Positions 21,247 through 28,818 of a stretch of DNA of 64,000 nt are shown here, piece by piece. The position numbers were made by a program, and so were the translations under genes. The first letter of the stretch is position 1. Each line of letters starts with the position of its first letter. The stretch lies in NCBI GenBank assembly GCA_027484145.1, contig JAIXUH010000013.1, positions 310,001 through 374,000 on the forward strand. Reading direction: 5' to 3'. The notes below the pieces were generated by a model. The model searched no databases. It had not been told where the DNA came from and saw only the letters and a list, made by a program, of their open reading frames with translations. This DNA comes from Rhodobacter sp. Its GTDB lineage: Bacteria > Pseudomonadota > Alphaproteobacteria > Rhodobacterales > Rhodobacteraceae.

Positions 21247-22419
21247 CTATTCCATCTCTTTTGCGAAAACCCGCGCAGCCTGCCTTCCGGCCCAACGGCC
21301 CGTGGCCCAGCAGCCTGTCAGCAGATAGCCGCCCGTGGGCGCTTCCCAGTCCAGCATTTCGCCACAGGCAAAGACCTGCGGCAGCGCGCGCAGCTCCAGC
21401 CTATCGGTCAGCGCGGCACGGGCTATGCCACCGGCAGACGAGATTGCCTCATCCAGTGGCCTTGGCCCGACCAGCGGAAAAGGCAAGGATTTCAGCGCCA
21501 GATGCAAGGGAAGCGCGCGGCCAAACTCCATCACCAAGGCGGCAGAAATGGGGGGCAAACCCAGTTTGCGCAGGCGGTTGGGCAAGGAGTCGGCGGGTTT
21601 CAGGCGGGCAAGCCGGGTCTGCAGCGCCTCGGCGGGCACATCAGGCAAAAGGTCCACCGTCAGGCGCGCGCCATCGCGCAGGGCACGGCTGATGGTGTAG
21701 ATGCCGCCCCCTTCCACACCTCGGGCCGAAATCACGAACTCACCCCGCTCGACCTGACCAGAGATGTGCAGGGCCACGCCCTTGACCGGCTGTCCGTAAT
21801 GACGGGCCATATGTGGCGACCAGTTGACCACAAAGCCCATATTGGCCGGGCGAAAGGGCACTATGTCCACGCCACGTGCCTGTAGCCACGGCACCCAAGC
21901 CGCATCAGAACCAAGCCGCGCCCAGCTTGCCCCGCCAAGGGCCAGCACCGTGACAACCGGCTGCAACAGGCGGGGGCCATCTGCGGTGTCAAAGGCGAAG
22001 GCATCGCCCTGCCACCCCGTCCAGCGCCAGCGGGTGCGGAAGCTGACCCCCTGCCCTGCCAACCGCCGCAGCCATACCCGGAGCAGAGGAGAGCCTTTCA
22101 TGGCCACCGGAAACACACGCCCGGATGATCCGGTGAACACAGGCTGGCCCAAAGCCTCGCACCACGCCGTTACCTCGGCAGGGCCGAATTCAGCCAGCAT
22201 CGGGGCAAGCCATGTGGTGTCATACTGGCGCGCAAAGGCATCGGGCGCCTCATCCTTGGTGATGTTCAACCCGGATTTGCCCGCCATCAGGAACTTGCGC
22301 GCCAATGTCGGCTTGGCCTCGGCCACAACCACCTTGCGGCCCGCGCGGGCCAATTCCTCGGCGGCCATCAACCCCGCTGGCCCGCCGCCAATGACCAGCG
22401 CATCCACCGTCTCGGTCAT
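21247..22419 (-). CDS. HI0933-like NAD(P)/FAD-dependent oxidoreductase
   Basis: 390 aa. FAD dinucleotide loop ALVIGGGPAGLMAAEELARAG at the N-terminus, then the family mark KFLMAGKSGLNIT, and a C-terminal CGEMLDWEAPTGGYLLTGCWA that closes the FAD site. Family members are flavoproteins of mostly unknown substrate. The start overlaps the stop of the MscS-type channel gene upstream (ATGA), so the two are coupled, although no functional link is known. Confidence 0.88.
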   Translation of the reverse strand: MTETVDALVIGGGPAGLMAAEELARAGRKVVVAEAKPTLARKFLMAGKSGLNITKDEAPDAFARQYDTTWLAPMLAEFGPAEVTAWCEALGQPVFTGSSGRVFPVAMKGSPLLRVWLRRLAGQGVSFRTRWRWTGWQGDAFAFDTADGPRLLQPVVTVLALGGASWARLGSDAAWVPWLQARGVDIVPFRPANMGFVVNWSPHMARHYGQPVKGVALHISGQVERGEFVISARGVEGGGIYTISRALRDGARLTVDLLPDVPAEALQTRLARLKPADSLPNRLRKLGLPPISAALVMEFGRALPLHLALKSLPFPLVGPRPLDEAISSAGGIARAALTDRLELRALPQVFACGEMLDWEAPTGGYLLTGCWATGRWAGRQAARVFAKEME

Positions 22420-23738
22420 GAGCTGACCGGCGCCACGGCGCCCTTGTGGTGGATCACCCGCTGCGGATAGGGCATCTCGATCCCCTCGGCCTTCAGCGCG
22501 TTCCAGATCGCGAACAGCACCGGCGATTTGTACTTGTTCTTGCCGTCGTCAATACCGTTCACCCAGTATTCCACTGCGAAATCAACAGCAGATTCGCCAA
22601 ACCCCGTCAGTTCGCAATCCGGCCCGTCAGGCTTTTTCAACACGAACGGCAGCGCCGCCACGGCCGCCTCGACAATCTCAGGAATGCGGTTGATGTCGGT
22701 GTCATAGCTGACCGAGAAAGTGGCCTCATAGCGATTGGCGCTGCCTTGGTCAGAATAGTTGACCACGCGACTGGTAATAAAGTGCTCATTGGGCACCATG
22801 ATCCATTTGCCGTCAAACGTCTCCAGCACGCAGGCGCGGGCGGTCATCTTGACGATGGTGCCCTTTTCGCCGCCGTCCAGTTCAACGTAATCGCCCACCG
22901 TCGTCTGCCCTTCGACGAGCAGGATGATGCCGCTGATAAAGTTGGCGGCAATCTGTTGCAGGCCAAGGCCGATGCCCACGCCCAAGGCACCGCCGATCAC
23001 GGCAATGGCCGTCAGGTCAATGCCCATGATCGACATCAACAAAAGGAAGGCCGCGCCAAAGATCATCACCTCGGCGGCCTTGACGGCAAGTTCGCGGGTG
23101 GCGGGGCGCAACTCCTTTTGCGCCTTGATATAGTCGGCCGATTGGCGGTTTGACCAAGACCCAAGCCAGAACAGCAGCGAACCCGCGATGATGCCGCGGA
23201 TCAGCGCCAATGCCGAAAAGCGGATGTTGCCAAGTTCCACCCGCGTAGCATCCAGCCAGGTGGTCACGTCATCCAGCAGGCCCAGCGCATAAAGTGCGGC
23301 TACCGGGACCACCACATAGCGGCCCAGCAGGCGCAGGAAGGGCTCGGTCAGCACATGTTGCACAAGGATGCGCGCCGCGATGAAGATGAACACGCGTTTG
23401 CCAAAGGCGATGACATCGCCCGAGCCGAACACTGACCGCGTCACCGCCTCGCCCGCCGCCGTCAGGCCGTAAGCGGCCAGCGGCATCAGCAAGGGCAGGA
23501 ACCGCAGCCCAAAGCGGCGCGCGGTGGTAATGATGCCCTCTTTCCCCTCGGGCGGGGTCAACAGGCGGGTCAGCAGCGGCGTGACCCGGGCGGCGATGAT
23601 CCGGGCCAGAAGGAAGGCCACGGCCAGCAGCGCGAACTGCGACCATGCGGCGGGGCTGGACAGCCAGCCCAGTGCGATCTGCAGGGCCTGATCCAGCCAG
23701 CCCAGAACCTTGTCCACGATCTGCGGTTGGCCGTTCAT
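22416..23738 (-). CDS. MscS-family mechanosensitive channel
   Basis: 440 aa. Five or so hydrophobic segments in residues 20-250 precede the MscS pore and beta domain: AVIGGALGVGIGLGLQQIAANFISG (TM3-like, Gly/Ala pattern), LVEGQTTVGDYVELDGG and VPNEHFITSRVVNYSD. It would act as an osmotic release valve in the inner membrane. Full length with an N-terminal extension compared with the 286-aa E. coli MscS. Confidence 0.9.
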   Translation of the reverse strand: MNGQPQIVDKVLGWLDQALQIALGWLSSPAAWSQFALLAVAFLLARIIAARVTPLLTRLLTPPEGKEGIITTARRFGLRFLPLLMPLAAYGLTAAGEAVTRSVFGSGDVIAFGKRVFIFIAARILVQHVLTEPFLRLLGRYVVVPVAALYALGLLDDVTTWLDATRVELGNIRFSALALIRGIIAGSLLFWLGSWSNRQSADYIKAQKELRPATRELAVKAAEVMIFGAAFLLLMSIMGIDLTAIAVIGGALGVGIGLGLQQIAANFISGIILLVEGQTTVGDYVELDGGEKGTIVKMTARACVLETFDGKWIMVPNEHFITSRVVNYSDQGSANRYEATFSVSYDTDINRIPEIVEAAVAALPFVLKKPDGPDCELTGFGESAVDFAVEYWVNGIDDGKNKYKSPVLFAIWNALKAEGIEMPYPQRVIHHKGAVAPVSS

Positions 23739-23838: not shown

Positions 23839-23975
23839 ATGACAAGTGATCACACCCCCATCTGCCCCCTGTGCCTGCGCCCCATCCCCGATGGCGTGCC
23901 ACAAAGCCTGCATCACCTTGTGCCCAAGCTAAAGGGCGGCAAGGGCGGCGCGGTCGTTTTGCTGCACCACATCTG
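23839..23975 (+). pseudogene. HNH endonuclease-like gene, 5' fragment (interrupted)
   Basis: First 45 codons of a small HNH protein: MTSDHTPICPLCLRPIPDG with a CxxC knuckle (Cys9, Cys12), then LHHLVPK and LLHHIC. The reading frame is cut by a mobile element at 23976. Removing the element and one copy of the target duplication rejoins it in frame to the fragment at 27357-27530, giving an intact 100-aa protein with the HNH core LHHICHKEIH. The insertion is thus probably recent. Small HNH proteins of this kind are widespread in Rhodobacteraceae; their function is not known. As it stands the 5' part would add only a few foreign residues before a stop. Confidence 0.9.
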
Positions 23976-24001
23976 CGGTGTTATGTAGCAACTGCACCAA
24001 G
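23976..24001. repeat. Left terminal inverted repeat
   Basis: Begins CGGTGTTATGTAGCAA; matches the right end in 24 of 26 positions, with mismatches at positions 17 and 18. Confidence 0.95.
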
Positions 24002-24012
24002 ACTAACACACT

Positions 24013-24031
24013 GGATTCCTGTAAGGAATCC
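24013..24031 (+). promoter_or_regulatory. Hairpin covering the ribosome site of the first cargo gene
   Basis: GGATTCCTGTAAGGAATCC is a perfect 8-bp stem with a 3-base loop. The downstream arm contains AAGGAA, the only ribosome-binding site for the ATG at 24034. Transcripts entering from outside the element would fold this hairpin and hide the site. IS10 and IS50 protect their transposase genes in a similar way. Confidence 0.55.
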
Positions 24032-24033
24032 CC

Positions 24034-24456
24034 ATGGAACGCCGCTATTACTATCGCCCGTGGAAAGATGAAACGCTTGTTTCGGCGCTGCACTTCTTGC
24101 GATGCAGGACCGCGCGCGAAGGTGGCGACCTTGGCCATGTGGACGCGCTTCTTCTGCGGCTTGGCGTTGATCCCGCTACCTTGCCAATGCCGCGCCCGAC
24201 GCCAAAGCACTTCGCGCGGGGCAAGCTGCGTATTGCGATCATGGAGGCGCTGCGCGATGGGCCAATGACTGGGGCCGATCTGGCAAGGCGCGTGCAGGGC
24301 AACGGACTGGACTATGCGGATGCGTACAGGAAGGTTTACGCGGCTCTGCATCGGCTCAAAGCGGCAAGGCATGTTATCCACAAAGAAGTTGGCCAATGGG
24401 CGCTGCCGCCTCAAAGGGCGGCTTGCGAATCTCGAACTGCTAGTGGTAGCGGTTAA
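24034..24456 (+). CDS. Cargo protein with winged-helix-like C-terminal half
   Basis: 140 aa, basic. The N-terminal half (RRYYYRPWKDETLVSALHFL) is not recognised. Residues about 65-125 look like a winged helix: LRIAIMEALRDGPMTGADLA, then a recognition-helix-like DYADAYRKVYAALHRLKA and a wing (HVIHKEVGQWAL). It may regulate element genes or assist transposition; both are inference. It is the first gene from the left end, behind the ribosome-site hairpin. Confidence 0.6.
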   Translation: MERRYYYRPWKDETLVSALHFLRCRTAREGGDLGHVDALLLRLGVDPATLPMPRPTPKHFARGKLRIAIMEALRDGPMTGADLARRVQGNGLDYADAYRKVYAALHRLKAARHVIHKEVGQWALPPQRAACESRTASGSG

Positions 24457-24558
24457 CTCTTGGCACCATCCCATGTGGGTGGCGCATTATGTTGCGCGTT
24501 TGCCCTTGACTCACCGCATGTTTGGATTCGATGCTGTCGATGACGGCTGGAAATGATT

Positions 24559-24591
24559 GCGCCGCCAAAGGGGTGCAACCCTCGGCGGCGC
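24559..24591 (+). terminator. Terminator-like hairpin inside the element
   Basis: Perfect 8-bp stem GCGCCGCC/GGCGGCGC with an inner GGG/CCC pairing; only a weak T-rich tail (TTCATT). It would separate the first cargo gene from the DUF3892 gene. The remainder of the 263-base gap (24457-24719) shows nothing else. Confidence 0.45.
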
Positions 24592-24719
24592 TTCATTCCG
24601 GTCTCCGCAGCCCGTTGCTGGGCCGCTGCGGATAGTCGGGAAAGTAGCTCTGAGTCTAGTACTCAGTGATTCGGCAAGTCAAGCGGCTCGGCACCCATTG
24701 GCCAAAGGAGTGCCAAAAG

Positions 24720-25004
24720 ATGGCTGCACAGACCGCACAGATTAAGTGCATCAACAAGCAAGACAGACAGAACCCGTGGGAACGAATTACTCACGTAGGC
24801 GGGTTCACCGACAAGCGCTGGAAGATTACTCAGCAAGACGCAATCAATCACATTGAAGCGGGGCGCTGGGATTTCTTCGTATCAGTCGGCGGCAAGTCCG
24901 TCTGGGTGGTTGTCGCGGAAAGCCGCTTCGGGAATAAGTACCTCAAGACGGAAGCGGATGAGGGTGAGAAGAACAACCTTCTGAGCCTTCCTGAATGCCC
25001 ATAA
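24720..25004 (+). CDS. DUF3892 domain protein (cargo)
   Basis: 94 aa. DUF3892 pattern: a variable N-terminus, ITHVGGFTDKRWKITQQDAI, NHIEAGRWDFFVSVGGK, and the ending YLKTEADEGEKNNLLSLPEC. Function unknown; the family is small, soluble and scattered among bacteria and mobile DNA. Start at 24720 has AAAGGAG nine bases upstream. Its last 62 bases overlap the 3' end of an opposite-strand cargo gene. Confidence 0.82.
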   Translation: MAAQTAQIKCINKQDRQNPWERITHVGGFTDKRWKITQQDAINHIEAGRWDFFVSVGGKSVWVVVAESRFGNKYLKTEADEGEKNNLLSLPECP

Positions 25005-25149
25005 CAAGGTCAAAGGGGGGTTTGTACCCACCCGGCTCCAAGGCCCAAGCCAGTGCCTGTTGGGCAATGTAAAGGCCTTGCGCATAAGGCTGATCAGGCC
25101 CTTCTCGAAGGGCCTGATTGACTTTGTCGATTTCGGCTTTGACGTGCAT
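24943..25149 (-). CDS. Small cargo protein on the reverse strand
   Basis: 68 aa: MHVKAEIDKVNQALREGPDQ, then YAQGLYIAQQALAWALEPGG and a polar tail. I do not recognise it. Support for a real gene is a perfect AGGAGG seven bases before the ATG at 25149, in an otherwise GC-moderate stretch. It is transcribed the same way as the transposase and follows it by 58 bases, so it may be its last operon gene. The 3' end overlaps DUF3892 tail to tail. Confidence 0.55.
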   Translation of the reverse strand: MHVKAEIDKVNQALREGPDQPYAQGLYIAQQALAWALEPGGYKPPFDLVMGIQEGSEGCSSHPHPLPS

Positions 25150-25207
25150 CGGCTTGCCTCCTAGTTGAGGTAATATTTTACCACATGATGAGAGGTATTT
25201 AAATACC

Positions 25208-26170
25208 TCACGCTGCCTTCTGCCAGTAGCCCTTCCATGCGCGGCTAACGGGGCACTCCATCGCATTCGCCACCAGACCGAAGGCAAGCGTGCCGTTGTC
25301 CTTGCGGCGGTTGTCCTCAAGCCATGCGGCTTGGGTCGCGTACTGGTGCAGGTAGCGCGGGCTGACGTGGTGATGTTGGCCGACAACCATACGACGCAGG
25401 CGCGAGAAATAGCTTTCGGCCCAGTTGGTGTGCTTGCCGTGGTCGCTGTAGACTTCGCTGTGGTTCACACGATCAACCGACCAGCCCGCATGCAGCATAT
25501 CCCAGTGAGAGGCTTCGTCAGCCGACAGGGTAGCCATGCGGTCAACGTTTTCGTTCACCAGTGCCACGCCTTCGGCTTCTGCCATGGTCACGACAGGCAG
25601 CGTGCGGCCAAGGCGTTCGCGCATGACGACAACGACGCGGCGGCGTCCGTTCTGGTTCTCTTTCAGGCGGCGGTCTTTGCGGTCTGCCTTGCGGTTCTCT
25701 GGGCGGATGGTGCCGCCAAAATATGCGCCATCAACCTCGACGTGGCCTTTCAGGATTTCGCCCGTATGAACCTCGTTGGCCATCGCTTCGCGCAGCTTGT
25801 GAGCCAGCACGAAGGCGGTCTTGTATTGGCAGTCCAGATCACGCGAAAGCTGCACCATGGACACGCCCTTAGCTGCGTTCACGGTGATGCAGATCGCGGC
25901 CAGCAGATCAACGAAGGCCATCTTGCGGCTGGCAAAGATGGTGCCTGACGTGACCGAGAACTGACGGTAGCAGCCCTTGCACTTGAACTTGCGACGGGTG
26001 GTGATCTTGTAGGTTTCGCAGCAGCCGCAGTCAGGGCAAACGGCTTCGCCATTGGTTTCGGGCCAACGCATCTTGCAGAACGTGTCATAGGCCGCTTCTT
26101 CACCAGCCTTGTAGACCGCCTTGAGGCTCAAGGTGCGAGCCGCTGCGGAAAGGAGGAAGTGCTGTGCCAT
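25208..26170 (-). CDS. IS1595-family transposase (ISXO2-like)
   Basis: 320 aa. N-terminal zinc ribbon with Cys45, Cys48, Cys64 and Cys67 (CPDCGC and CKGC), then the DDE_Tnp_IS1595 domain: catalytic Asp147 in VEVDGAYFGG, Asp218 in LSADEASHW, and Asn249/Glu252 in TNWAESYFSRLRR. All catalytic positions are intact and the frame is uninterrupted, so the enzyme is probably active. Transcribed divergently from DUF6471 across a palindromic control region. Confidence 0.95.
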   Translation of the reverse strand: MAQHFLLSAAARTLSLKAVYKAGEEAAYDTFCKMRWPETNGEAVCPDCGCCETYKITTRRKFKCKGCYRQFSVTSGTIFASRKMAFVDLLAAICITVNAAKGVSMVQLSRDLDCQYKTAFVLAHKLREAMANEVHTGEILKGHVEVDGAYFGGTIRPENRKADRKDRRLKENQNGRRRVVVVMRERLGRTLPVVTMAEAEGVALVNENVDRMATLSADEASHWDMLHAGWSVDRVNHSEVYSDHGKHTNWAESYFSRLRRMVVGQHHHVSPRYLHQYATQAAWLEDNRRKDNGTLAFGLVANAMECPVSRAWKGYWQKAA

Positions 26171-26184
26171 TTGTCATCGCCTGC

Positions 26185-26246
26185 GTTACTTATGTAACGT
26201 ATATAGTGCGTTGACGTACCGCGTGCAAGGGCATAAGTAACGTATA
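26185..26246. promoter_or_regulatory. Divergent control region with palindromic sites
   Basis: Between the transposase and DUF6471 starts, GTTACTTATG (26185-26194) is inverted as CATAAGTAAC (26232-26241), and TAACGTATA occurs twice in direct orientation (26195-26203 and 26238-26246). Two matching sites about 45 bases apart suggest a dimeric repressor covering both promoters; DUF6471 is the obvious candidate. Confidence 0.6.
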
Positions 26247-26273
26247 AGATACTTTTCTTATCGTAGGTGATAC

Positions 26274-26498
26274 ATGCCAGAGCAAACAGACTGGGAAATG
26301 ATGGCCGCAAACCTCTTAAAGGCCGAACTCAAGCGAAAAGGCGTGACTTATGCGCAGCTTGTCGAAAAGCTGACGGCAATGGGAATCGATGAAAAGGAGG
26401 TGAACGTCCGCAACAAGCTTTCACGAGGGAAGTTTAGCGCGGCGTTCATGTTGCAATGTTTAAGTGCGCTTGGGTGTTCATCGTTGCATTTGGATTGA
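26274..26498 (+). CDS. DUF6471 protein, probable small regulator (cargo)
   Basis: 74 aa. DUF6471 pattern: LLKAELKRKGVTYAQLVEKL, AMGIDEKEVNVRNKLSRGKF and SAAFMLQCLSALG. The layout resembles a Cro/C1-type helix-turn-helix, in which the NVRNKLSRG segment would be the recognition helix; this is inference. Divergent from the transposase, so it may repress transposition. Overlaps the next cargo gene by 43 bases. Confidence 0.75.
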   Translation: MPEQTDWEMMAANLLKAELKRKGVTYAQLVEKLTAMGIDEKEVNVRNKLSRGKFSAAFMLQCLSALGCSSLHLD

Positions 26499-27301
26499 TG
26501 CTATCAGGCTCATCAGGGCAAGCCCAAGAACAGGCACAAACCGAACAGGGCGGCGCAGGCAGCGAACAGAAGCCAACCTTTCCTTTTGTTTTTCAGGTTG
26601 ATGTCACCGAGAGCCAAGCCGAGGCCGAGTCCAGCAAACGCCGCGAAGCCGAAGCCCGCCAACGCGAGATTGATGACCTGATCGCCCAGCAAGGCATGAA
26701 CGCGGCTACGCAAGCCATGCGCCAGTATAGCTACGTTCAGACGTGGCTTATTGGCATCGGCACTGCGCTCCTGATTGCCACTCTCTGGCTCACCATCAAG
26801 GCAAACAATTCTGCCAGGGATGCCGTGCAAGTCGCCAGAGAGATAGGTCAAGCCCAGACCAGAGCCTACCTTTCTTTCAAGGTTGACGTTTCGGATACAG
26901 GCCACAACCCAGACCAAAACGGCATCCTTGTTACTTTCGCTGTAAACAACTCCGGCGCTTCGCCAGCCATTGGGGCAAACATCTACACCCACATACGTTG
27001 GTATCCAGTCAACGAATACAGGGATGAAGAAATCGTCTCTTGGCAACTGCTTGCCAGCAAAGTCAACATCGGCGCTCAAGGGATGGCAAGCATGGTCATA
27101 TTCAGAGTTCCCACAGATGTGATCCAAGCCACGCGGGATTCGGCATTTGAGATTGAGATTTCCGCAAAGGTCTGTTTCTTCGACGTATTCGCTAGGGAAG
27201 GGCAAGCTCCATACGAGTTGTCCCAGCGTTTTTACCTCTGCGGGAGCAACTTTTCCGCAATGATGCCTTTCAACCCAAGGGCAAAGCAAATCCAAGCATA
27301 A
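26456..27301 (+). CDS. Cargo membrane protein of unknown function
   Basis: 281 aa. N-terminal hydrophobic segment (residues 4-23, possible signal ending near GQAQ), a charged helical stretch at about 50-90 (SKRREAEARQREIDDLIAQQ) likely to be coiled coil, a transmembrane helix at about 96-115 (TWLIGIGTALLIATLWLTI), and a C-terminal domain (about 135-270) with beta-rich character. No known family recognised. It ends 30 bases before the right inverted repeat. Membrane-anchored cargo could serve host fitness or exclusion; there is no direct evidence. Confidence 0.6.
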   Translation: MFKCAWVFIVAFGLMLSGSSGQAQEQAQTEQGGAGSEQKPTFPFVFQVDVTESQAEAESSKRREAEARQREIDDLIAQQGMNAATQAMRQYSYVQTWLIGIGTALLIATLWLTIKANNSARDAVQVAREIGQAQTRAYLSFKVDVSDTGHNPDQNGILVTFAVNNSGASPAIGANIYTHIRWYPVNEYRDEEIVSWQLLASKVNIGAQGMASMVIFRVPTDVIQATRDSAFEIEISAKVCFFDVFAREGQAPYELSQRFYLCGSNFSAMMPFNPRAKQIQA

Positions 27302-27330
27302 GACAAGGTGCTTAATCATGAGCAGCTCAC

Positions 27331-27356
27331 CTTGGTGCGCTTGCTACATAACACCG
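27331..27356. repeat. Right terminal inverted repeat
   Basis: Reverse complement begins CGGTGTTATGTAGCAA; pairs with 23976-24001 and is followed directly by the target duplication. Confidence 0.95.
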
Positions 27357-27530
27357 CACATCTGCCACAAGGAGATCCACGCCCGGTTCACCGAAACCGA
27401 ACTGGCGCGGGGGTTCAACACGGTTGAGGCGCTGCGCGAGAGTGAGCGGTTGCGGCCGTTTCTGGATTGGGTCGCCAAACGGCCGCCCGCGTTTTCCAGC
27501 CGGGTGCCGGGCGGGCACCGCAGGCGGTGA
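27357..27530 (+). pseudogene. HNH endonuclease-like gene, 3' fragment
   Basis: Begins with the second copy of CACATCTG and continues the frame cut at 23975: HKEIHARFTETELARGFNTV and a basic tail GGHRRR. No start codon of its own beyond element-derived sequence, so it is probably not translated. Confidence 0.88.

Positions 27531-27663: not shown

Positions 27664-28818
<1,155 letters not shown>

What the first reader, a model, noticed from the sequence alone, without database searches (positions are those of the whole stretch)
23968..27364. Intact IS1595-family element with five cargo genes inside an HNH gene
The element has 26-bp ends (24/26 match), an 8-bp target duplication CACATCTG, and an uninterrupted transposase. 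Excising it with one target copy restores the HNH frame exactly (LHHIC joined to HKEIH). Passenger genes are known in this family, but this set (winged-helix-like, DUF3892, a 68-aa gene, DUF6471, a membrane protein) is not one I recognise and could be an undescribed transposon type.
Basis: partly seen in the sequence, partly recalled or inferred. Interest (0 to 1): 0.75.

Follow-up and report, generated by a model that had tools for sequence, protein, structure and literature searches.

The report
Cargo transposon with swappable target selector

Summary
In detail: 26-bp ends (24/26), CACATCTG duplication, intact IS1595-family transposase, and exact restoration of an HNH gene that is uninterrupted in six same-genus genomes. 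The element is one of 74 complete relatives with one plan: end, slot A, DUF6471, transposase, slot B, winged-helix gene (wHTH), end. Two of the five 'cargo' genes (wHTH, DUF6471) are therefore core. Parts reassort: transposases 95-98% identical travel with wHTH of 16-90% identity. Main result: wHTH subtype, not transposase, predicts the insertion site. Eight of twelve elements of the window's wHTH type sit at the same codon of the HNH gene, in both orientations; none of 60 others does. A second type hits one codon of comM; others sit beside distinct short motifs. In 12 held-out elements, nearest wHTH gave target similarity 0.578, nearest transposase 0.330, including elements whose transposase is only 50-59% identical. 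Best reading: wHTH is an exchangeable target selector, working like Tn7 TnsD/TnsF, in a family where my searches found none reported. DUF6471 is probably the transposase repressor. Cargo function is unproven. Some wHTH types show no clear target, and all evidence is comparative.

The parts
23968..23975 (.). left target duplication CACATCTG inside the HNH gene
   Evidence: exact 8/8 match to the right copy; same HNH position used by seven other elements of the 74
23976..24001 (+). terminal inverted repeat, wHTH end
   Evidence: 24/26 to the other end; same type of ends in 73 of 80 related loci
24034..24456 (+). 140-aa winged-helix-like protein (wHTH), proposed target selector
   Evidence: core gene in 71 of 74 elements; subtype predicts target; weak PadR similarity E 0.043
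24720..25004 (+). slot B cargo: DUF3892 protein, 94 aa
   Evidence: Pfam 3.8e-20; best match in the other elements only E 0.35
24943..25149 (-).
   Evidence: no match better than E 0.62 in the other elements; no Pfam match for the longer reading frame
25208..26170 (-). IS1595-family transposase, 320 aa, uninterrupted
   Evidence: Pfam and NCBIfam; D147, D218, E219, N249, E252 conserved in at least 97% of 73 homologues
26171..26273 (.). divergent control region between transposase and DUF6471
   Evidence: covaries with DUF6471, not with transposase
26185..26198 (.). palindrome GTTACTTATGTAAC upstream of the transposase start, probable operator
26274..26498 (+). DUF6471 protein, 74 aa, XRE-like helix-turn-helix, probable transposase repressor
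   Evidence: Pfam 7.7e-32; model pLDDT 93.6; XRE folds nearest in PDB
26456..27301 (+). slot A cargo: membrane-anchored protein, 281 aa
   Evidence: cluster of 32 slot A ORFs; model: N-terminal helix, long helix, beta sandwich
27331..27356 (-). terminal inverted repeat, slot A end
27357..27364 (.). right target duplication CACATCTG
23839..23975 (+). 5' part of the interrupted HNH gene
   Evidence: Pfam HNH 0.017, below cut-off, for the fragment
27365..27530 (+). 3' part of the interrupted HNH gene

Best explanation
The element is a mobile IS1595-family cargo transposon. Its machinery has three parts. (1) A DDE-type transposase acts on the 26-bp ends and makes an 8-bp duplication (ends and duplication shown; chemistry inferred from the family). 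(2) The wHTH protein encoded at one end binds a specific sequence in the target and directs the transposase there. The window's subtype is aimed at the codons for L-H-[HQ]-I-C in a small HNH gene; other subtypes are aimed at the Walker B codons of comM, beside distinct short motifs, or at other shared sites. (Association shown; binding and recruitment inferred.) (3) DUF6471, an XRE-type repressor, binds palindromes in the divergent control region and keeps transposase expression low (fold predicted, covariation shown, repression inferred). Two slots between these parts carry exchangeable passengers. Recombination between copies reassorts the parts, so the same transposase can acquire a new selector, repressor and cargo (reassortment shown, route inferred).
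For: Common plan in 74 complete elements. Duplication exact in 66 and at least 7/8 in 68 of 74; 68 of the 72 with both flanks readable. Eight of 74 elements lie at one HNH codon; all 8 carry one wHTH type of 12 members, and 0 of the 60 other elements with readable flanks are there (one of the 60, L050, has no assigned wHTH), Fisher 4e-8. Mantel on 68 elements, target flanks without the duplication: wHTH r 0.349, 0 of 5000 permutations; wHTH given transposase 0.336, 0 of 5000; transposase given wHTH 0.005, 2243 of 5000. It holds without the HNH group (0.357), without close pairs (0.431) and without both (0.423), 0 of 3000 each. CCTCCGGCGGG with up to 1 mismatch: 8 of 11 type-4 targets, 0 of 21 type-5, 2 of 39 others; CCCCGG: 12 of 21 type-5, 0 of 11 type-4, 1 of 39 others. 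Held-out 12: mean target similarity by nearest wHTH 0.578, by nearest transposase 0.330, random partner reached 0.578 in 0 of 20000; wHTH was the better guide in 11 of 12. They include L160 (transposase 59%) at the HNH codon and L140, L142, L162 (50-56%) at comM. ComM fragment: 5.2e-67 to PDB ComM. A minimal relative of transposase plus wHTH, 1.54 kb with 24/26 ends and 8-bp duplication, lies on a Limimaricola plasmid. Repressor: control region vs DUF6471 r 0.716, partial 0.705, 0 of 5000; vs transposase given DUF6471 -0.032, in 65 elements; palindrome with paired changes.
Against: No binding or transposition experiment. The structure of wHTH was not predicted, and its DNA-binding fold rests on weak similarity (PadR 0.043; NmtR 0.095 and PadR about 1 in PDB). 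4 of 12 elements of the HNH type are elsewhere (L021, L072, L081, L083). Type 10 (11 elements, plus held-out L138 and L155) shows no clear common target although many wHTH pairs there are 79-90% identical, so selection is not universal or is looser there. L147 was mispredicted, and for L156 the nearest transposase did slightly better (0.50 vs 0.48). One of 4 type-7 and one of 3 type-11 members lie elsewhere. The motifs were chosen after seeing the target lists; only L134, L152 and L156 test them independently. Control region and DUF6471 are neighbours, so their covariation could be linkage; two of five measures (pairs changed on both sides, 335 of 500; further pair types, 231 of 500) did not exceed shuffles.
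Confidence: 0.74

Rival explanations
1. Linkage: wHTH lies next to the element's edge, so elements at one site descend from a few old insertions whose transposase and cargo were replaced by recombination while wHTH stayed linked to the flank. wHTH has no role in targeting.
For: Reassortment is real. L017 and L039 share the same unlike right junction at HNH, as expected for exchange or fusion at an occupied site. At comM, wHTH and transposase are more alike within an orientation than between (0.776 vs 0.625; 0.842 vs 0.519).
Against: At HNH, insertions occur in both orientations (4 and 4 in the main set; 4 and 6 with L128 and L160), and wHTH identity does not split by orientation: 0.481 same, 0.499 opposite. 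comM also has both orientations (2 and 3). Types 4 and 5 share short motifs in flanks that are otherwise unlike. 68 of 72 readable elements have matching duplications, the mark of whole-element insertion.
Confidence: 0.13
2. Ordinary IS1595 element with passengers and a loose AT-centred target preference; HNH and comM are merely tolerated sites, and wHTH is a regulator.
For: A general S-A-W-A-T-W-T-S preference exists (68 duplications; 61 non-HNH targets); passengers are known in the family (ISsaga passages). The HNH gene was not found in 100 of 198 family genomes at E 0.001, so it is dispensable.
Against: 0.7% of window 8-mers score as well as the HNH site, yet 8 of 74 insertions hit that one. 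Tolerance does not explain why wHTH type sorts with the site and transposase does not.
Confidence: 0.08
3. The transposase and wHTH jointly fix the target, with wHTH only modifying transposase choice, for example by DNA bending rather than sequence recognition.
For: An AT-centred 8-bp core is common across the pooled targets, which may reflect the transposase; three distant plasmid relatives have a wHTH match just after the transposase (L107, L108, L109; L110 had none).
Against: Motifs outside the duplication are type-specific.
Confidence: 0.15

Closest known systems
IS1595 family and its passenger-carrying members ('transporter IS', tIS; Siguier, Gagnevin, Chandler 2009, not held, known here from citing passages in PMC3129680 and PMC5704250)
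   Same: transposase family, 8-bp duplication (recalled), passengers between the ends
   Different: a core wHTH that sorts with target site, a DUF6471 repressor and two exchangeable slots; I could not check whether ISfinder lists a two-gene relative
Tn7-like transposons with TnsD, TniQ or TnsF selectors (PMC10293859, summary and passages read)
   Same: dedicated exchangeable target selector, conserved coding sites, cargo; TnsF targets the Walker B region of comM, the same region as wHTH type 1 here
   Different: no TnsA/B/C or TniQ seen here; a single wHTH of about 110-165 aa; both orientations used; 8-bp duplication by an IS1595 transposase
Tsy (tyrosine-recombinase element with TnsF, PMC10293859, passages)
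   Same: comM site and cargo
   Different: different enzyme class, no inverted repeats detected by its authors
Tn3-family transposons with toxin-antitoxin pairs (PMC7157771, search listing with start of abstract only)
   Same: toxin-antitoxin-like genes inside a transposon
   Different: other transposase family; here such genes are one of many slot contents
MTnSag1 / tISCpe8 (passages of PMC5704250)
   Same: IS1595-family DDE transposase with passengers
   Different: integrative mobilizable elements; tISCpe8 is a lincomycin resistance element; no transfer origin was sought here

Membership tests
IS1595 family | DDE_Tnp_IS1595 / transpos_IS1595 transposase | tested here: met
IS1595 family | inverted ends of 20-30 bp and 8-bp duplication (recalled) | tested here: met
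IS1595 family | assignment to a named ISfinder subgroup | not testable with these tools
   ISfinder not available
transporter IS (tIS) | passenger genes unrelated to transposition between IS ends (definition in a PMC3129680 passage) | tested here: met
   slot A and B contents vary across 74 elements; that they are unrelated to transposition is inferred
Tn7-like transposons | TnsB-type transposase with TnsC AAA+ and TniQ/TnsD | tested here: not met
   no such family among Pfam hits of the window's element genes or of 78 slot cluster representatives, 24 of 26 slot A and 54 of 74 slot B clusters
functional analogue of a target selector (works like) | selector type predicts insertion site independently of transposase | tested here: met
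   not for every type
functional analogue of a target selector (works like) | selector binds the attachment site and is required for insertion there | not testable with these tools
   needs experiment
XRE-type repressors (DUF6471) | XRE helix-turn-helix fold | tested here: met
   predicted model pLDDT 93.6; top PDB folds are mostly XRE regulators, TM 0.5-0.73, but Foldseek E 0.057 at best
XRE-type repressors (DUF6471) | cognate operator in the divergent promoter | tested here: inconclusive
   covariation and palindrome; linkage not excluded

The most novel reading that the evidence does not exclude
A family of small DDE transposons uses one interchangeable wHTH protein of about 110-165 residues as a protein-guided aiming device, with no AAA+ matchmaker. 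Each subtype reads a conserved host sequence (HNH zinc-ligand codons, comM Walker B codons, glycosyltransferase GGT codons, short motifs), and natural reassortment lets one transposase be re-aimed. That would be a categorically new, minimal targeted-transposition system.
Probability: 0.55. Interest if true: 0.92.

Novelty: new variant of a known kind. Interest (0 to 1): 0.84.

Why it matters
Site-specific transposition by a DDE enzyme is known mainly from the multi-protein Tn7 group (from general knowledge and PMC10293859 passages). If a single small protein can aim an IS1595 transposase, the minimal requirements for targeted insertion become directly testable with two genes and two 26-bp ends. 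The natural set of subtypes and their sites would give a code linking protein sequence to DNA target. It could also explain how passenger-carrying elements persist at low copy number in particular sites across Rhodobacterales, and it shows convergence with Tn6022 and Tsy on comM.

Tried and rejected
Considered that cargo is a defence island. PADLOC models matched some slot representatives (BstA 8.9e-16 for L073 and HEC-09 5.8e-48 for L090; PDC-S05 1e-96, which I attribute to the RhuM-type protein of L053; capP and RmrA among slot A). But 54 flanking control genes (54 of 70 candidates) also gave two systems, PDC-S31 and PDC-M57A. Among 54 slot B representatives at least 4 proteins matched; the exact number cannot be read, as one list shows 25 of 41 rows and does not name members. 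No enrichment is claimed. The window's own four genes scanned had no PADLOC match.

Toxin-antitoxin enrichment: by my own attribution of pooled Pfam hits to clusters, 13 of 74 elements carry Panacea, HicAB, RelE or DUF4258-type genes in slot B. Of 27 small flanking genes none gave those families, though one SUKH-1 (SMI1_KNR4) hit appeared; the full control list was cut at 25 of 53 families.

Considered adjacency of the HNH gene to ccrM as functional: no ccrM match at E 1e-10 in the 7 other HNH-site loci as held. Considered that an 8-mer preference alone explains HNH: rejected. The motif patterns searched in the window: none; the type-5 pattern as I wrote it was rare in whole genomes (4 matches in 2 of 8), so type 5 is not claimed to be a repeat. 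The transposase gave no match in phage records at E 1e-40 and 14 plasmid records at E 1e-60.

Localising specificity within wHTH: both halves correlate with target (0.374 and 0.320), so no part was singled out.

Rows dropped: seven of 80 loci lacked a pair of ends; L038 and L088 were left out of the control-region tests because of mis-set starts; 43 of 74 elements were given to the palindrome count; search hits that looked like duplicates or were partial were not fetched.
Full report
What is there. The window (contig C38 of a 4.97-Mb genome) holds a 3381-bp element with 26-bp ends matching at 24 positions and an exact CACATCTG duplication. Read with the transposase forward, its order is: end, membrane protein (slot A), DUF6471, control region, transposase, DUF3892 (slot B), winged-helix-like gene (wHTH), end. 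The transposase is IS1595 family. The host HNH gene is restored exactly by joining the flanks, and six same-genus genomes have it uninterrupted. In its own genome the element is single-copy; the next transposase is only 36% identical.

A family of elements. One scan of GTDB contigs with the transposase gave 183 relatives, of which the best 80 were kept. 73 of 80 have both ends of the same type, so with the window there are 74 complete elements; seven of 80 are incomplete. Lengths run from 2.3 to 4.6 kb. The duplication is exact in 66 and at least 7/8 in 68 of 74; two others (L016, L040) lie at contig edges and four (L017, L021, L039, L056) have unlike flanks. L052 was first paired with the wrong end; the corrected pair has an exact duplication.

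Core and slots. By clustering of all ORFs, transposase is present in 73, DUF6471 in 73 and wHTH in 71 of 74. The wHTH of L055 was later found on the other strand in slot B position, and L067 and L075 have diverged ones. Slot contents vary: 85 slot A ORFs include 32 like the window's membrane protein and 12 of a 282-aa type; 106 slot B ORFs, some doubtful, fall into 74 clusters. G+C content separates core from slots (64 to 67 elements): transposase 0.591 and wHTH 0.588 against flanks 0.612; slot A 0.504, slot B 0.491 and DUF6471 0.493. A Limimaricola plasmid has a 1.54-kb relative of transposase plus wHTH only, with 24/26 ends and an 8-bp duplication (L107); L108 and L109 show the same gene pair, without ends established. 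A cargo-bearing relative with 48% transposase identity, DUF6471, wHTH, 23/26 ends and an 8-bp duplication occurs in another family of the class (L111). The wHTH is therefore best seen as part of the machinery.

Copy number. In 394 family genomes 27 had the transposase at E 1e-90, one match each; in 390 order genomes 37 had it at E 1e-80, with two or three matches in two of them. Of nine genomes holding ten of my loci, two had two copies.

Reassortment. In the 21 pairs of elements with transposases at least 95% identical, wHTH identity runs from 0.16 to 0.90 and DUF6471 from 0.49 to 0.96; slot A types agree in 5 and slot B in 2 of these 21. In L018/L023, DNA identity of 94% begins 13 bases before the transposase gene, stops 7 bases before its end and resumes over the wHTH end. 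Four elements with unlike flanks, and L052 abutting a truncated second element, are footprints that recombination between neighbouring copies could leave (inference).

wHTH and the target. Eight of 74 elements lie at exactly the same codons (LH[HQ]IC) of the same HNH gene, four in each orientation. Their transposases are no more alike than background (0.819 vs 0.825) but their wHTH proteins are (0.410 vs 0.309 even with L055 miscalled; 175 of 20000 random groups as high). With L055's true wHTH, all eight belong to a 12-member type, while 0 of the 60 other readable elements are at HNH (Fisher 4e-8). Listing targets by wHTH type showed: type 1 (L067, L075) at the same codon of comM (PDB ComM match 5.2e-67); three of four type 7 (L031, L037, L038; transposases 97-98% alike) at one shared site; two of three type 11 (L053, L089) at a glycosyltransferase GGT motif (my reading of translations); type 4 beside CCTCCGGCGGG (8 of 11; 0 of 21 type 5; 2 of 39 others); type 5 beside CCCCGG (12 of 21; 0 of 11 type 4; 1 of 39 others). 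The type 4 motif is multi-copy: 0 to 38 matches in eight genomes, none for the reversed control. Over 68 elements, target flanks without the duplication correlate with wHTH (0.349, 0 of 5000 permutations, maximum 0.132) and, given wHTH, not with transposase (0.005). The result survives removing the HNH group, close pairs, or both (0.357, 0.431, 0.423; 0 of 3000 each).

Held-out test. Of 43 loci fetched from the search hits, 23 were duplicates of the first set and 20 had no counterpart among the 74; two of the 20 (L131, L132) have the contig lengths of L063 and L064, incomplete loci of the first set. 12 of the 20 gave a pair of ends with duplication and 8 did not. In the 12, nearest wHTH gave mean target similarity 0.578, nearest transposase 0.330, and random partners reached 0.578 in 0 of 20000 draws; wHTH was the better guide in 11 of 12. 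By nearest type, 9 of 12 were as predicted: L128 and L160 at HNH, L140, L142 and L162 at comM, L134 type 5, L152 and L156 type 4, L158 with L085. L147, L138 and L155 were not. L160 and the three comM elements have transposases only 50-59% identical to the window's, so target follows wHTH across transposase subfamilies. On 82 elements combined, wHTH correlates at 0.372 (0 of 3000) and transposase at 0.024 (974 of 3000). Among the eight without an end pair, L132 (genome G334) has a wHTH nearest the HNH type and a piece of the HNH gene on the same contig 1.6 kb from its transposase.

Linkage tested. If wHTH merely hitch-hiked with a flank, wHTH should split by orientation at HNH. It does not: 0.481 within and 0.499 between orientations for 10 elements. 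Both orientations are also used at comM, but there wHTH and transposase are more alike within an orientation (0.776 vs 0.625, and 0.842 vs 0.519), so comM alone would not exclude linkage. Host phylogeny was not used as a covariate.

Regulation. DUF6471 models as a four-helix domain (pLDDT 93.6), nearest in PDB to ClgR, restriction-modification controller proteins and HipB (Foldseek probability about 1, E 0.057 at best). The control region follows DUF6471 (0.716; partial 0.705) and not transposase (partial -0.032) in 65 elements. Five-base palindromes with a four-base spacer occur in 34 of 69 control regions against 7.7 in shuffles. On 43 of 74 elements, the palindrome about 20 bases before the transposase start has 26 cells changed on both sides (shuffled mean 10.6, 0 of 500) and 79% of cells paired against 27-46% when slid; the number of pairs changed on both sides and of further pair types did not exceed shuffles. 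An RNA hairpin is not excluded, because G-U cells count as pairs in that tool.

Cargo. The window's slot A protein has a predicted N-terminal helix, a long helix and a beta-sandwich with weak likeness to ApaG and Kir domains (pLDDT 74.5; best E 8.4e-5, TM about 0.3 on the query): a membrane-anchored sandwich of unknown function. DUF3892 is uncharacterised. Slot B elsewhere has toxin-antitoxin-like pairs, KilA-N/BstA-like, NYN and GIY-YIG-like proteins (GIY-YIG is my reading of the sequence). I regard addiction or defence as plausible but unproven.

Literature. No paper held mentions DUF6471. IS1595 with 'target site selection' gave two papers, seen only in the listing; at least three of IS1595, winged helix, target selector, DDE transposase and site-specific insertion gave one review without IS1595 (listing). 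IS1595 with Rhodobacter gave two papers, of which one was checked and only cites the 2009 paper. Passengers in IS1595 elements are known (passages; the 2009 paper itself was not held). The closest functional precedent is PMC10293859 (summary and passages), where TnsF targets the comM Walker B region. Subscription papers and ISfinder were not searchable, so novelty is provisional.

Noticed in passing
L052:2615-3794: A second element with a truncated transposase and its own wHTH abuts the complete one, sharing the duplication TAAATTTC; tandem neighbours that could recombine.
   Followed up: partly
L017 and L039, right junction of the element: Both HNH-site elements have the same unlike right flank GAAATTCA, 15 bases beyond the expected one; possibly fusion of two insertions at neighbouring sites.
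   Followed up: partly
L002:1306-1363 (own genome, contig C34): A 58-base stretch 81% identical to the start of the wHTH gene without the rest of the element: a possible remnant.
   Followed up: no
Rhodobacteraceae genomes, e.g. that of L026: The motif CCTCCGGCGGG[AG]ATATTT occurs up to 38 times per genome (up to one mismatch), none when read backwards; a multi-copy repeat of unknown role, absent in 2 of 8 genomes.
   Followed up: no
window:23839-27530: The interrupted HNH gene lies beside ccrM (27664-28809) and a mechanosensitive-channel-like gene (22416-23738) (names from my reading of the translations); the latter is near HNH also in L039 and L059.
   Followed up: partly
wHTH type 10 elements (L033, L035, L036, L043, L049, L056, L062, L073, L078, L079, L086): wHTH with a longer N-terminal part and no clear common target; three of the 11 right flanks (L033, L078, L086), and held-out L138, contain GACATT about ten bases beyond the duplication.
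   Followed up: no
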